From Leadbettera azotonutricia ZAS-9 (lineage in GTDB: Bacteria; Spirochaetota; Spirochaetia; Treponematales; Breznakiellaceae), in the NCBI RefSeq assembly GCF_000214355.1, contig NC_015577.1, positions 2,781,389 through 2,845,388 of the forward strand: a stretch of DNA of 64,000 bases. Direction: 5' to 3'. Positions 1,809-41,610 of this stretch are shown here, piece by piece. The position numbers and the translations under genes are program-made. How positions within the stretch are numbered: position 1 is the stretch's first letter; the number at the start of each line of letters is the position of its first letter. The notes under the pieces are model-generated. The model saw only the letters and a list, made by a program, of their open reading frames with translations, had not been told where the DNA came from and did not search any database.

Positions 1809-2927
1809 ATGACATCCAGAGAACGTTTTAACCGTGCCATCAGGCATGAAACAGCAGACAGGGCAGTTTTCGACCTTTGCGGCTGCCCCCAGACCCTTAT
1901 CGACTATCAGGAAACCAGGGACAGTCTCAAGGCGTACTTCGGCCTTTCAGGTACGGACAAAGGCGGCTTCCCCCTGGATGAGCGCATCCTCGATTTTTTT
2001 GACATCGATACCCGCATAGTTGGCGGTATGCCTACACCCAATACAGTGCATAACCGTACCGAAGGAGAAATCCATTACGATTCCTACGGCATAGGGCACA
2101 AACCAATCAATGGCCATTTTGAAATCTGCCATAATCCCCTGAAGGATGCAAGTATGGATGAAATGCTAGCATATCCCCTGCCCGATGCTTCCAAAATAGA
2201 TCGCCAGCTTATTCGTTCCTGGGGAGAGAGGGCCAAATATCTGCATGAGAACACTAATTATGCCATTATTGCAGAACATCCGGTACTCGGCGTATTCGAA
2301 ATAGGCTGCTGGCTCTTCGGCTTTGATGATTATCTTTACCGTGTCGCAGCTGAGCCCGAACTAGTGCACGAATTTTCCCGGCGTATTCTTGATTACCAGA
2401 AGGCGGTTATCGATATTTACTATAGCGAGCTGGGGCCCTACATAGACTGCACATCTTCGGGGGATGATTTCGGCATGCAGACCGGAACTTTCATGTCGGT
2501 GAATATGTTCAACGAAATGATAGCTCCCTATTTTTCGGAGCGCATCTGCCATACCAAAAAATACACTTCTGCCTTCTACGAGCATCACACTTGCGGCAGC
2601 GTCCATTCCCTCATACCAAGCCTGATTAAATGCGGTGTTGACATTATCAATCCTATTCAACCCGGGACCTATATGATGGAACCGGAACGGCTTAAAAAAG
2701 ATTATGGCGCCCAAATTTCATTTTGGGGCGGCATAGACACCCAGGAACTACTGCCCCGCGGTACGCCGGAAGAGGTAGAAGAAAGGGTAAAACAAATACT
2801 CTCTATCATGGGGGATGAAGGGTACATACTCTCACCGGCTCACTGCATACAGCAGGACGTGCCTGCCGCAAATATTGCAGCGATTTATTCGGGAGCCAAA
2901 AAGTTTTACAAGGCCAGGGGGGAATAG
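1809..2927 (+). CDS. Uroporphyrinogen decarboxylase-fold protein (putative methyltransferase)
   Basis: 372 aa, opening MTSRERFNRAIRHETADRAVF and preceded by AAGGAAGG. The C-terminal half carries YEHHTCGSVHSLIPSLI (residues near 260) and FWGGIDTQELLPRGTPEEV, which is the canonical URO-D-like barrel end. The HH/TCG positions correspond to metal ligands in cobamide-dependent methyltransferases of this fold. It is a distant paralogue of the gene at 503. It runs into the ROK regulator with one intervening base, so the three probably form one transcript. Specific substrate not assigned. Confidence 0.75.
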   Translation: MTSRERFNRAIRHETADRAVFDLCGCPQTLIDYQETRDSLKAYFGLSGTDKGGFPLDERILDFFDIDTRIVGGMPTPNTVHNRTEGEIHYDSYGIGHKPINGHFEICHNPLKDASMDEMLAYPLPDASKIDRQLIRSWGERAKYLHENTNYAIIAEHPVLGVFEIGCWLFGFDDYLYRVAAEPELVHEFSRRILDYQKAVIDIYYSELGPYIDCTSSGDDFGMQTGTFMSVNMFNEMIAPYFSERICHTKKYTSAFYEHHTCGSVHSLIPSLIKCGVDIINPIQPGTYMMEPERLKKDYGAQISFWGGIDTQELLPRGTPEEVEERVKQILSIMGDEGYILSPAHCIQQDVPAANIAAIYSGAKKFYKARGE

Positions 2928-2928
2928 T

Positions 2929-4134
2929 TTGGCTTCCAGAGGGGAACCTCGATCTTCGATCTCGGCTGGGGTTCCCGGCACCCGCAGTAATGCACTTATA
3001 TCGAAGGAACACAACAGAAAACTGCTGCTCCGCCATATTCTCAATACCTCTGTTTCAAGAATAGAAATTGCATCCCTCACCGGCCTTACAAGGGCAGGCG
3101 CAGGGGTAATCGTGGATTCCCTCATTAAAGACGGATTCCTGGAAGAAGAGCTTACAAAAAAACCGGGCAAGGGCAGATCTCCCAAAGCACTTTACATACG
3201 GGACACAGCCCTCTATGCGGTGGGTATCAATATTACCCGTTCGGGCAGTTCCGCAGGTATTTGCGGCCTTAATGGAAAAATAATCTGCGCTAAATCCTTT
3301 CCTGTTAAGCATAGTCGGGAAGAAACTATCGATCTGATTCACAATGAAGTAAAAAAAATGCTTAAGGGGTTAAAGATAAATCCCCGCAGTGTTGCCGGTG
3401 CAGGTATTACTACCCCCGGCCCGGTGGATTCCATTAAAGGCGTCATTCTCAAACCCCCCGATTTTAATCATTGGGAATTTTATCCTATCGCTGAAATTTT
3501 TGAGGAGAAATTGGGTATCCCGGCATACCTTGAAAACAACTCGATTGCCAGAACCATCGAAGAGCAGTATTACGGCGTAGGAAAATTATACGAAGACTTT
3601 ATAAACCTTGTGGTAGACAACGGCATAGGCGGTGGCATAGTAGTCAACATGAAACTCATCAAGGGTGTGGGAGGCTGCGGCAGCGAGCTGGGACATATCA
3701 CCATCAATAGCCAGGGGAAACGCTGCTACTGCGGCAACCCCGGCTGCCTTGAAATGTACGCCAACCCCAAAGCCTTTGTTACCGAAGCTGTCAAGGCCGG
3801 ATACAAAATAAAAAGCTGGGACGAGATAGCCCTCCGTGCCGAAGCGGGAGAGGCGTATTTTAAGAACATGGTAAAACGCATGGCTTTCTACATTGCTTCA
3901 GGCTGCACCAGCCTCATCAACCTCTTTGAACCCCAGGTGATTATTATCTCAGGCGAGCTGAACCAGCATAATACTACGCTGATAAAATACATACAGGATG
4001 AAGTGAACAAGAGCAGAATCAACCGTGATGTACGGGAAGTAGCCATCCTGAGCTCCGACACTGACAAGAGCCAGGGGGTAATGGCCGCAGCCACCCTGGT
4101 CTTTAGCTGCTATCTTTCAAGTCCTATAAGGTAA
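2929..4134 (+). CDS. ROK-family transcriptional regulator (NagC/XylR type)
   Basis: About 401 aa from TTG 2929, chosen because a G-rich Shine-Dalgarno (AGGGGGGAA) sits just before it and the stop of the previous gene is one base upstream; the frame also extends back inside that gene. The N-terminal ~80 residues form a winged-helix HTH (RKLLLRHILNTSVSRIEIASLTGLTRAG). A ROK sugar-kinase-like core follows, with VDNGIGGGIV, GSELGHIT and the zinc motif CYCGNPGCLE. The kinase phosphate-binding DxGGT motif is not conserved (VGINITRSG), fitting a repressor. It probably controls the URO-D genes upstream in answer to a small ligand. Confidence 0.85.
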   Translation: MASRGEPRSSISAGVPGTRSNALISKEHNRKLLLRHILNTSVSRIEIASLTGLTRAGAGVIVDSLIKDGFLEEELTKKPGKGRSPKALYIRDTALYAVGINITRSGSSAGICGLNGKIICAKSFPVKHSREETIDLIHNEVKKMLKGLKINPRSVAGAGITTPGPVDSIKGVILKPPDFNHWEFYPIAEIFEEKLGIPAYLENNSIARTIEEQYYGVGKLYEDFINLVVDNGIGGGIVVNMKLIKGVGGCGSELGHITINSQGKRCYCGNPGCLEMYANPKAFVTEAVKAGYKIKSWDEIALRAEAGEAYFKNMVKRMAFYIASGCTSLINLFEPQVIIISGELNQHNTTLIKYIQDEVNKSRINRDVREVAILSSDTDKSQGVMAAATLVFSCYLSSPIR

Positions 4135-4860: not shown

Positions 4861-5662
4861 TGGCGGCCTCCACGGCGTCTGCGCCAAGGTATGCTTTAAT
4901 TACCGCAGGATTACGCTTAATTTCTTCGGGGAGGCCTTCGGCAATAGTGCGTCCGTAATCCAATACCATAAGGCGTTCGCAAATACCCATTACAAGGCGC
5001 ATATCGTGCTCAATAAGAAGAATGGTAAGCCTAAACTCTCTGCGGATCAGGGTGATAAGCTTCATGAGCTCATCAGTCTCCTGTGGGTTCATGCCCGCAG
5101 CAGGTTCGTCCAAAAGAAGAAGACAAGGGTCTGATGCCAGGGCCCGGGCTATTTCAAGTTTGCGCTGTTCGCCATAGGGAAGATTCCGCGCCAGTTCATG
5201 CTTCTTTTTTTCTATCTTGAAAAGGGAGAGCAGCTCATTTGCCTTGCCGATCATGCGCTCCTCATCCTCAAGAAAACCAGGCAGCCTAAAAAGAACCTGA
5301 AAGGGGTTTGTCTTCCTCCCTCCATGCAGCGCGATGCGTATGTTGTCTTCCACTGTAAGATTCGAAAAAAGCCTGATGTTCTGGAAGGTCCGGGCAATGC
5401 CAACGCGGTTAAGCTTATAGGGGCTCATGCTCCCTCCAAGATAAATATTCCCCTGCCTGTCCCAAAATTCCATTTGCCCAGCGCTCGGCGCATAAATCCC
5501 CGAGAGCATATTGAAAACTGTGGTCTTTCCGGCACCATTAGGCCCGATAAGCCCCACCAGCTCCCCCTGGTACAATTCGCAGGAAAAATCGCTCACCGCC
5601 TTAAGGCCGCCAAAAACAATGGAAAGATCCTGAATCTTGAGGCGCAGCTCTTTGCCGCTCAT
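4853..5662 (-). CDS. livG: LivG, branched-chain amino acid ABC transporter ATPase
   Basis: 269 aa, normal for LivG. Walker A GPNGAGKTT lies near residue 40; LPYGEQRKLEIARAL stands for the signature; LLLLDEPAAGMNPQE is Walker B and a switch-region HD follows (IEHDMRLVMGICERL). The C-terminal GLPEEIKRNPAVIKAYLG is typical of LivG. It overlaps livM by four bases (ATGA) and livF by eight, as in a tightly coupled liv operon. It pairs with LivF at the inner membrane to power uptake of leucine/isoleucine/valine or related solutes. Confidence 0.93.
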   Translation of the reverse strand: MSGKELRLKIQDLSIVFGGLKAVSDFSCELYQGELVGLIGPNGAGKTTVFNMLSGIYAPSAGQMEFWDRQGNIYLGGSMSPYKLNRVGIARTFQNIRLFSNLTVEDNIRIALHGGRKTNPFQVLFRLPGFLEDEERMIGKANELLSLFKIEKKKHELARNLPYGEQRKLEIARALASDPCLLLLDEPAAGMNPQETDELMKLITLIRREFRLTILLIEHDMRLVMGICERLMVLDYGRTIAEGLPEEIKRNPAVIKAYLGADAVEAANG

Positions 5663-40484: not shown

Positions 40485-40616
40485 GGTATAAACACATTAA
40501 GCAATTTGATAATGCATTTAACCCTTTTGGTTAAAGCGTTTAAGCTCTTAGGTTAAAGCATTTGATCCCGGTGCTTAAAGCATTTATAAAAAAATATAAA
40601 TCATTTGGCCAGATAG
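40485..40616. repeat. 22-bp phased palindromic repeat array, cluster A
   Basis: Six units begin every 22 bp at 40485, 40507, 40529, 40551, 40573 and 40595. The best units read GGTTAAAGCGTTTAAG and GGTTAAAGCATTTGAT; the core is an imperfect palindrome TTAAAnnnTTTAA. Edge units are degenerate. A spacing of 22 bp is about two helical turns, so bound proteins would lie on one DNA face. Since 22 is not a multiple of three, the repeats are not protein-coding repeats. The element looks like an operator or iteron array. Confidence 0.75.
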
Positions 40617-40816
40617 TACAAAAATTCATAAAACCGGTCAAAACAGCCATCAAAACAGGGAGTTGCTTCATTCTCCGGGACGGTTTTATCATACAGATCT
40701 AAGGGTATATCATGCAGGCAGACAGCTATAAGCATGGGTTTTACCCGTCGACGGGCCGAAATGCCCTGTTGTTTATATCCATCGAACAGTATGTTTATAT
40801 GTTCGGTATAAACCAT
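40601..40816 (-). CDS. Small hypothetical ORF between repeat clusters
   Basis: 71 aa (MVYTEHINILFDGYKQQG ... CFDGCFDRFYEFLYYLAK). Not recognised; no membrane segment or signal. Only a weak CCAGG lies upstream of the ATG, and both ends run into the repeat arrays. It is the only sizeable minus-strand ORF in the 550-base stretch between sdaAA and the next gene. Could be real and controlled by the arrays, or chance. Confidence 0.3.
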   Translation of the reverse strand: MVYTEHINILFDGYKQQGISARRRVKPMLIAVCLHDIPLDLYDKTVPENEATPCFDGCFDRFYEFLYYLAK

Positions 40817-40910
40817 TTAATGAACCTGGTTAAACACTTTAAGGGACTTGGTTAAACGATTCAACGAATCCGGTTAAACGCTTTAAGCAGCCTGGTTAAA
40901 CAGAGTATGC
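40805..40910. repeat. 22-bp phased palindromic repeat array, cluster B
   Basis: Five units starting at 40805, 40828, 40850, 40872 and 40894 (first step 23, the others exactly 22 bp). Each opens with GGTTAAAC (first GGTATAAAC, like the first unit of cluster A) and continues as a TTAAAnnnTTTAA-type palindrome, e.g. GGTTAAACGCTTTAAG. Same family and orientation as cluster A about 230 bp away. Confidence 0.75.
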
Positions 40911-40928
40911 TTTTTTATAAAAGCGCCT

Positions 40929-40953
40929 AAAAAACCCGCCGGAAGCCGGCGGG
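40929..40953 (-). terminator. Terminator after the 41010-41510 gene
   Basis: Minus strand: perfect 8-bp stem CCCGCCGG/CCGGCGGG with a three-base loop (stem 40935-40942 and 40946-40953), followed by six T. Strong intrinsic terminator pointing away from the gene on the right. Confidence 0.8.
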
Positions 40954-41009: not shown

Positions 41010-41510
41010 TTACAGCTTGGTTTCTCCCTCTTTGTTCGGCGGCAATTCCGTCTCAGGGCGCTTTACATGGGGAAACTGCTTTTTCAAACGCAGGTAAAGG
41101 GGCTTTGCCCCAGCCTGGCCGCTCTTGGACGCCTCCCGCAGATAGCGGTGGATGCTCAGGGCATTCTGGTATGCACTGTTGCTCAGGAGGATTTCGCTGC
41201 TCCTGATATAATCCATGAGCTTTTTGGCCTCGTTTTGCAGTTGTGACAGCACCTTTACATTGGACATGTCCTGGTTTAAATCATCAACACTGAGATAGCT
41301 CGGAATATACCCGGTATTTTTCAGTGCAATGACATGTGCTGTTTCCACAAACCCCAGACGCTTGATTCCTATCGCGTTTTTTGACTTCTTGGGCTTTGGG
41401 CTTAGCTTTTTGAGCGTAAGAGCAAAAGAGCTGTTAATTCCTTCCAGTTTGCCCAGCATTTCGCTGAAAGCATCAACCGGGAGATCCGATTTTTGAGCTG
41501 TAGCAGCCAT
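41010..41510 (-). CDS. Hypothetical protein with its own operator and double 3' hairpin
   Basis: About 166 aa from ATG 41510 (MAATAQKSDLPVDAF), chosen for the AAGGAG seven bases before it; the frame also opens at 41531. I do not recognise a family. It is mainly helical and basic, with a Lys/Pro-rich segment (LSPKPKKSKNAIG, ~42-54), a part resembling a short DNA- or RNA-binding region (KRLGFVETAHVIALKNTGYIPSYLSVDDLNQDMS), a long helix (KVLSQLQNEAKKLMDYIRSSEIL) and an acidic tail. It stands alone between the repeat arrays and an exporter operon in AT-rich DNA, which suggests acquired material. Confidence 0.65.
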   Translation of the reverse strand: MAATAQKSDLPVDAFSEMLGKLEGINSSFALTLKKLSPKPKKSKNAIGIKRLGFVETAHVIALKNTGYIPSYLSVDDLNQDMSNVKVLSQLQNEAKKLMDYIRSSEILLSNSAYQNALSIHRYLREASKSGQAGAKPLYLRLKKQFPHVKRPETELPPNKEGETKL

Positions 41511-41571
41511 AAAAAACTCCTTCGGCATCAATCCGCCGGTTCATAGCCGGCATTATGAAACCTTAATGATT

Positions 41572-41610
41572 TGAGATAACTTCAATATTTGATATATTAG
41601 AGTTATCTCA
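41572..41610. promoter_or_regulatory. 9-bp perfect inverted repeat, probable operator
   Basis: TGAGATAAC (41572-41580) and GTTATCTCA (41602-41610) form a perfect inverted repeat with 21 bases between, in very AT-rich DNA upstream of the minus-strand gene. Half-sites are three helical turns apart centre to centre, as for a dimeric or looping regulator. The rest of 41532-41734 is AT-rich with several -10-like sequences but no other clear structure. Confidence 0.5.

What the first reader, a model, noticed from the sequence alone, without database searches (positions are those of the whole stretch)
40485..40910. Two clusters of 22-bp-phased palindromic repeats
At least eleven units with a constant 22-bp step share the palindrome TTAAAnnnTTTAA after GG. 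Both clusters begin with the same variant GGTATAAAC and flank one small ORF. The regular two-turn spacing suggests a protein that assembles cooperatively along one face of the DNA, as iterons, partition sites or multi-operator arrays do. There are no spacers, so it is not CRISPR, and 22 is not a codon multiple. Nothing known to me in treponemes matches.
Basis: seen in the sequence. Interest (0 to 1): 0.6.

Follow-up and report, generated by a model that had tools for sequence, protein, structure and literature searches.

The report
Unknown gene with phased DNA array
The odd repeats are the tail of a previously unnamed two-part genetic module, a small gene of no known family followed by a run of DNA units spaced two helical turns apart, which recurs many times in related spirochetes, often right beside anti-virus defence genes.

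Summary
A two-unit version of the 22-bp motif occurs at only two loci in the 3.86-Mb genome: E1 (the finding) and a paralogue, E2. The "small ORF" is not conserved. The stretch between the two clusters is itself 21-bp-phased in both copies, so each locus is one continuous array.

E1 lies just past the 3' end of window gene 41010-41531(-), which has no credible match in Pfam, NCBIfam, PHROGs or PADLOC. That gene has five paralogues in the genome, and relatives in 50 of 200 genomes of its family. Downstream of 39 of 44 testable copies the best repeat period is 21 (37) or 22 (2); 33 are clear, against 0 of 43 upstream. Unit sequences differ between loci and track protein relatedness. The arrays are not coding, show no hairpin covariation, and do not reappear in the gene's own promoter. 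In the commonest clade they are often followed by restriction-modification, abortive-infection or PIN genes; in one genome two matching arrays bracket an AlwI-type system.

Best reading: DNA sites two helical turns apart that seed a one-faced nucleoprotein array, part of a mobile, defence-associated module. The module is shown; what binds and why is inferred. I found no description of it.

The parts
40485..40925 (-). E1: one continuous array of about 20 degenerate units, step 22 at both ends and about 21 in the middle, read in the direction of its gene (minus strand)
   Evidence: (period 22, score 49.8, best of periods 15-30)
40805..40910 (.). gene-proximal end of the array: five clear units, TTAAAnnnTTTAA palindromes at 22-bp step
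40595..40804 (.). middle of the array (first taken for a core with an ORF): 21-bp-phased, non-coding, 74% identical to E2
40485..40594 (.). distal end of the array: five units at 22-bp step, inverted relative to the proximal end
40935..40953 (-). terminator-like hairpin CCCGCCGGCTTCCGGCGGG + T run between the gene and the array
41010..41531 (-). linked gene (ATG start likely at 41510; stop codon 41010-41012): small helical protein of an undescribed family, five paralogues in this genome

Best explanation
The finding is the 3' array of a two-part module. Part one is a small (about 160-220 aa), all-helical protein gene of an undescribed family. Part two is a tandem array of degenerate, dyad-symmetric DNA units (about 4 to 47 in the clear cases) that begins 0-153 nt past the stop codon and steps by 21 bp (22 in the window and one weak case). 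Shown: gene and array go together, the period is fixed, unit sequences differ from locus to locus, and in the commonest clade the module often sits next to defence genes. Inferred: 21 bp is two turns of B-DNA, so each unit offers the same face of the helix, and a protein (the linked one, or a partner) binds unit after unit and builds a one-faced nucleoprotein array. Differing unit sequences would keep the several copies in one cell from cross-reacting, as incompatibility groups do for partition sites. Most likely role (inference, weakest step): holding, insulating or silencing a horizontally acquired cassette.
For: Best period 21 or 22 downstream of 39 of 44 gene copies; 33 clear arrays downstream against 0 of 43 upstream; lags 21/42/63 raised downstream only; in 427 kb fetched, tandem arrays are almost all of period 21; palindrome columns conserved, rest free; motif similarity follows protein identity, 22 of 2000 permutations reach it; no coding signal and no pair covariation, as expected of independent DNA half-sites; neighbours are MTases, AlwI REases, KAP, GmrSD, Abi_alpha and PIN genes; one R-M system bracketed by two like arrays in the same orientation. 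Published analogy: iteron binding is cooperative and lost on a half-turn shift (PMC4980987); ParR assembles on tandem sites (PMC5016525).
Against: No binding was shown. Canonical members of the protein family are acidic (pI about 5), unusual for a DNA binder, though the window's copy is basic (pI 9.7). No DNA-binding domain or fold was recognised. Five of 44 copies lack a 21/22 array, E2 is an array without the gene, and the Thiodictyon homologue has no array. In T. azotonutricia itself most neighbours are not defence genes.
Confidence: 0.45

Rival explanations
1. The array is a recombination or landing platform: defence cassettes enter and leave at the tandem units, by homologous recombination between units or by a recombinase encoded elsewhere, and the small protein is an accessory factor.
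For: In G025 an AlwI-type REase and MTase lie between the gene's array and a second 20-unit array of the same unit and orientation; cargo differs between loci; many gene copies are broken.
Against: Only one clear two-array bracket was seen; no recombinase is part of the module; homologous recombination alone would not need a fixed two-turn period or palindromes; no target-site duplication at E1 or E2.
Confidence: 0.25
2. The array works as RNA: a 3' UTR or small RNA of repeated units, bound by the linked protein or cut into guides.
For: Most arrays start within tens of bases of the stop codon, so read-through is likely; some units could form short hairpins.
Against: No covariation between palindrome arms (1559 paired cells against 1541 expected); no Rfam match; a terminator-like hairpin precedes E1; RNA gives no reason for a 21-bp period.
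Confidence: 0.12
3. The arrays are a selfish or neutral satellite that expands by slippage and happens to sit behind this gene family.
For: Copy number runs from few to 47; some arrays are nearly perfect and look recently expanded (L139, L145).
Against: Old, highly degenerate arrays keep the period and the palindrome columns; 21 bp is shared by arrays of unrelated sequence, which slippage does not explain; 33 downstream against 0 upstream.
Confidence: 0.1
4. E1 and E2 are a species-private pair of operator clusters (or a small mobile element) around a conserved 205-bp core, unrelated to the neighbouring gene.
For: Core 74% identical between E1 and E2 and absent elsewhere; E2 has no family gene nearby.
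Against: All six family genes of the genome have a downstream array, E1 being one; the core is 21-bp-phased itself.
Confidence: 0.05

Closest known systems
Iteron arrays of plasmid origins (R6K and pPS10 have 22-bp iterons; PMC4980987)
   Same: Short tandem sites at a two-turn step beside a protein gene; the published binding is cooperative and phase-dependent
   Different: Linked protein is not a known Rep; arrays are chromosomal, several per genome, with a different unit at each; always behind the gene's 3' end
Plasmid centromeres parC / tubC of type II and III partition systems (PMC5016525)
   Same: Tandem repeats, sometimes in two blocks, on which a small protein can build a helical array; private specificities
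   Different: No motor gene beside the array in the neighbours examined; array downstream rather than upstream of the gene; no sign of autoregulation
Tn7-like transposon ends with arrays of 22-bp TnsB sites (PMC8649781)
   Same: Arrays of about 22-bp sites, ends of E1 inverted relative to each other, defence cargo in the wider class
   Different: The stretch between the ends of E1 is array, not cargo; no target-site duplication; no transposase found linked
Integron cassettes with attC behind each gene (own knowledge, not tested)
   Same: A palindromic site directly behind a gene; a stock of defence-type genes
   Different: Tandem 21-bp units instead of a single folded attC; the same gene family precedes the arrays
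CRISPR arrays
   Same: A tandem array next to a protein gene, with defence genes nearby
   Different: No unique spacers, 21-bp units without gaps, no cas gene recognised; the linked protein is in no defence library searched

Membership tests
CRISPR array | repeats separated by unique spacers of similar length | tested here: not met
   units abut with 21/22-bp step and no spacers
CRISPR array | cas genes nearby | tested here: inconclusive
   no Cas family among the linked proteins or the neighbours scanned, apart from a weak Cas11 score of E 0.025 for the window protein; whole genomes not scanned for cas
iteron plasmid origin | tandem direct repeats of about 17-22 bp | tested here: met
   21/22-bp step
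iteron plasmid origin | linked Rep initiator with winged-helix domains | tested here: not met
   linked proteins match no Pfam or NCBIfam family above cut-off; predicted all-helical fold
iteron plasmid origin | autonomous replication | not testable with these tools
   needs an experiment
type II (ParMRC) partition site | ParM/StbA motor gene in the genome | tested here: inconclusive
   no StbA_N match, but the control genomes did not ring either
chromosomal parABS centromere | 16-bp parS palindrome TGTTTCACGTGAAACA | tested here: not met
   two perfect parS at 3.84 Mb, none at E1 or E2
Tn7-like transposon end | TnsB transposase with Mu-type C-terminal domain in the genome | tested here: inconclusive
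   no PF09299 match, but the control genomes did not ring either
Tn7-like transposon end | target-site duplication at the outer edges | tested here: not met
   no direct repeat beyond chance at E1 or E2
autoregulatory operator array | the motif occurs in the promoter of the linked gene | tested here: not met
   mean z of own motif upstream -0.04 over 28 loci
structural RNA | compensatory changes between palindrome arms | tested here: not met
   1559 paired cells against 1541 expected under independence
coding heptad repeat (7 codons) | one frame kept open through the arrays more than chance | tested here: not met
   19 stops in best frames against 22.7 expected over 28 arrays; the window's step is 22
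integron cassette array | IntI integrase and attC sites | not tested

The most novel reading that the evidence does not exclude
A new kind of genetic module: an undescribed small helical protein paired with a private, helically phased DNA array directly behind its gene, carried in several mutually distinct copies per genome and serving as the maintenance or capture platform of a mobile defence-cassette system in these spirochetes.
Probability: 0.4. Interest if true: 0.9.

Novelty: categorically new. Interest (0 to 1): 0.8.

Why it matters
A fixed two-turn period kept across arrays of unrelated sequence in many genera is a strong sign of a real DNA-protein device that no library searched here names. 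Its place beside restriction, abortive-infection and PIN genes, and the case where two matching arrays bracket an R-M system, suggest a way in which these bacteria gather or hold on to defence cassettes. It also offers over 30 gene-array pairs with differing unit sequences, a ready set for asking how DNA recognition changes and whether copies in one cell are kept apart.

Tried and rejected
Mobile element with a 200-bp conserved core: set aside when the core proved to be 21-bp-phased and no target-site duplication was found. Structural or small RNA: no Rfam match at gathering score, only noise below it, no covariation. Small ORF between the clusters: frame broken in the paralogue. Divergent promoters in the core: hits near chance. 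Rex regulation: E2 lies beside rex, which has its own Rex-box-like palindrome; E1 has no such link. Exact motif elsewhere: 8 GTDB contigs hold unrelated tandem repeats; one 20-mer match in IMG/VR lies inside a phage gene and is taken as chance; none with the other patterns. E1's own sequence in relatives: no array pattern in 200 family genomes and only short stray matches elsewhere, because the unit sequence is private. Linked family in phages: none; in plasmids: one distant hit without an array; in IMG/VR: no relative. Solved structures by sequence and fold: nothing credible, although weak or missing matches do not show the fold is new. Papers: no description found in an open-licence library.

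Full report
CHECK OF THE OBSERVATION. The units are present where stated. A two-unit pattern with up to three mismatches occurs only at the finding (E1) and at a paralogous intergenic place 0.49 Mb away (E2, L004 about 4971-5300), ten matches per strand against one in the reversed control. Palindrome columns carry 1.51 bits and the other columns 0.46, so the palindrome is what is conserved. The outer ends of the arrays are inverted relative to each other: the distal end of E1 against the proximal end of E2 scores 68 inverted, while the best of 500 nulls that keep the palindromes is 53; within E1 alone the evidence is weaker (11 of 500 nulls reach it).

FIRST READING AND ITS CORRECTION. At first E1 and E2 looked like two operator clusters around a 205-bp conserved core (74% identity). 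The core does not look coding: 1- and 20-bp indels and a stop break the frames. No homologue of core or array appeared in 200 genomes of the family, 394 of the order, phages or plasmids, apart from short stray matches. That would have left it a species-private oddity.

THE TURN. The neighbouring gene at 41010-41531(-), which runs towards the array, has five paralogues in the genome. Reading past their 3' ends showed degenerate arrays with 21-22-bp steps behind them, confirmed by computation for all six. The family matches nothing above noise in Pfam, NCBIfam, PHROGs or PADLOC. A profile of the six (A4) finds it in 50 of 200 genomes of the family, in 24 of 57 genera, with up to eight matches per genome, many of them fragments or with stops.

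FAMILY-WIDE TEST. For the first set of loci the mean autocorrelation z at lags 21, 42 and 63 is 2.55, 2.65 and 2.17 downstream, against 0.65, 0.27 and 0.62 upstream, where coding periodicity gives a general rise at multiples of three. In a second, larger set the best period among 15-30 was 21 in 37 and 22 in 2 of 44 copies with enough downstream sequence; 33 of these are clear (score 25 or more), against 0 of 43 upstream of the same genes. In all 427 kb fetched, arrays above a fixed score are almost only of period 21 (35 stretches, 29 of them at these genes); the single one at 22 is E1; period 28 appears five times, at least partly as an echo of 7-bp sub-repeats. Arrays begin 0-153 nt past the stop and hold about 4 to 47 units in the clear cases. 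Unit sequences differ: TCTnnnAGA, GGAGTTCnGAAC, ACGTCTnnnnAGACGT, GAGGTATAAAACCTC and AGAACGCGTTCT classes. Motif similarity follows protein identity (Mantel rho 0.28; 22 of 2000 permutations reach it), which fits co-inheritance or co-evolution; the two are not told apart.

RE-READING E1. With this in hand the core was tested alone: its strongest lag is 21 in E1 (0.389), and lags 21 and 42 are the strongest in E2. E1 is therefore best read as one array of about twenty units, best kept at its two ends, lying behind its gene after a terminator-like hairpin. E2 is an array without the family gene, between rex and a PIN-domain gene; no remnant of the family gene was found there.

WHAT THE ARRAY IS NOT. 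Not coding: 19 stops in the best frames of 28 arrays against 22.7 when columns are shuffled. Not RNA hairpins by covariation: 1559 paired cells against 1541 under independence. Not an operator of its own gene in the sense tested: the own motif is absent upstream (mean z -0.04). Not parS: two perfect sites lie at 3.84 Mb. Not CRISPR: no spacers.

NEIGHBOURHOOD. The next large open frame past the array was scanned for 18 loci. Among the canonical clade: N6/N4 MTase (L131), C5 MTase (L127), AlwI REase (L119, L130), KAP NTPase of PDC-S20 followed by an MTase (L140), GmrSD/HEC-05 (L143), Abi_alpha/PDC-S47 (L139); L144 and L122 gave no match and L118 is a tyrosyl-tRNA synthetase (PADLOC). Frames cut by contig ends also read as AlwI (L128, L129) and as one PIN-like protein (L134, L154) (by reading the letters, not by a family search). 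All four AlwI loci carry the TCTnnnAGA unit class, in genomes of three genera; two of the enzymes, L119 and L130, share 473 of 598 aligned residues. In G025 the REase (L119:3015-4823) and an MTase (2216-3073) lie between the gene's array and a second, 20-unit array (961-1382) of the same unit in the same orientation (similarity 0.80 direct, 0.60 inverted). In T. azotonutricia and the divergent clades the neighbours are mostly ordinary genes. The loci scanned were chosen for having a long frame nearby, so this is a count on a small sample, not an enrichment test.

PROTEIN. AlphaFold2 on A6 gives an all-helical model (pLDDT 87, pTM 0.68) with one 55-residue helix and a disordered tail. No credible fold match was found, which does not show the fold is new. 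Canonical members are acidic with a short basic stretch near the C-terminus; the window's copy is basic (pI 9.7).

MECHANISM. Shown: linkage, fixed period, palindromic sites, locus-specific unit sequences, defence genes among the neighbours. Inferred: 21 bp equals two turns of B-DNA, so units present one face of the helix. Published iteron work reports that separating two iterons by half a turn abolishes cooperative Rep binding (PMC4980987), and ParR assembles a superhelix on tandem sites (PMC5016525). I therefore propose a one-faced nucleoprotein array whose binder is the linked protein or a partner. The acidic proteins are the main doubt. The chief rival is a platform where cassettes enter and leave between units.

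NOVELTY. No library or paper searched here describes the gene family or the module; the paper library holds open-licence texts only. The kind of site (phased tandem binding units) is known; the module is not. I rate the whole as categorically new with about even confidence, because the role is unknown and a member of a known class could still be hidden in the divergent protein.

Noticed in passing
L004:4971-5300 (G000:3311470-3311799): E2, an array without its family gene, ends about 30 bases from the stop codon of a PIN-domain gene with a likely antitoxin gene upstream of it.
   Followed up: partly
L004:4877-4894: Rex-box-like palindrome CTGTGAAATATTTCACAG upstream of a rex-like gene next to E2.
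   Followed up: no
window 41573-41609: Perfect inverted repeat GAGATAAC ... GTTATCTC with 21 bases between the arms, upstream of the linked gene; possibly its own operator.
   Followed up: no
L119:9878-10173: A second, unrelated 21-bp array (CAACTCTGCGCCATCTTGTCT, 14 copies) with no family gene seen beside it, next to many GTGTCAGACA-like repeats.
   Followed up: no
L134 and L154, just past the arrays: Two genomes carry nearly the same PIN-like gene (KLRLYLDTSVISYLDQTDSPEKMAETRLF) right after arrays of different unit sequence.
   Followed up: partly
G006, G026, G060, G186 and others: Many copies of the family are broken by stops or frameshifts, as expected of mobile or dispensable genes.
   Followed up: no
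L117:4914-5381 (plasmid pTs417 of Candidatus Thiodictyon syntrophicum): A distant homologue of the linked protein outside spirochetes (38% over 84 aa), without a 21-bp array behind it.
   Followed up: yes
L139 and L145: Arrays of 47 and 37 units, much longer and more uniform than the rest, as if recently expanded.
   Followed up: no
G000:3839569-3840394: Two perfect chromosomal parS sites 0.8 kb apart near the end of the contig, marking the likely origin region.
   Followed up: no
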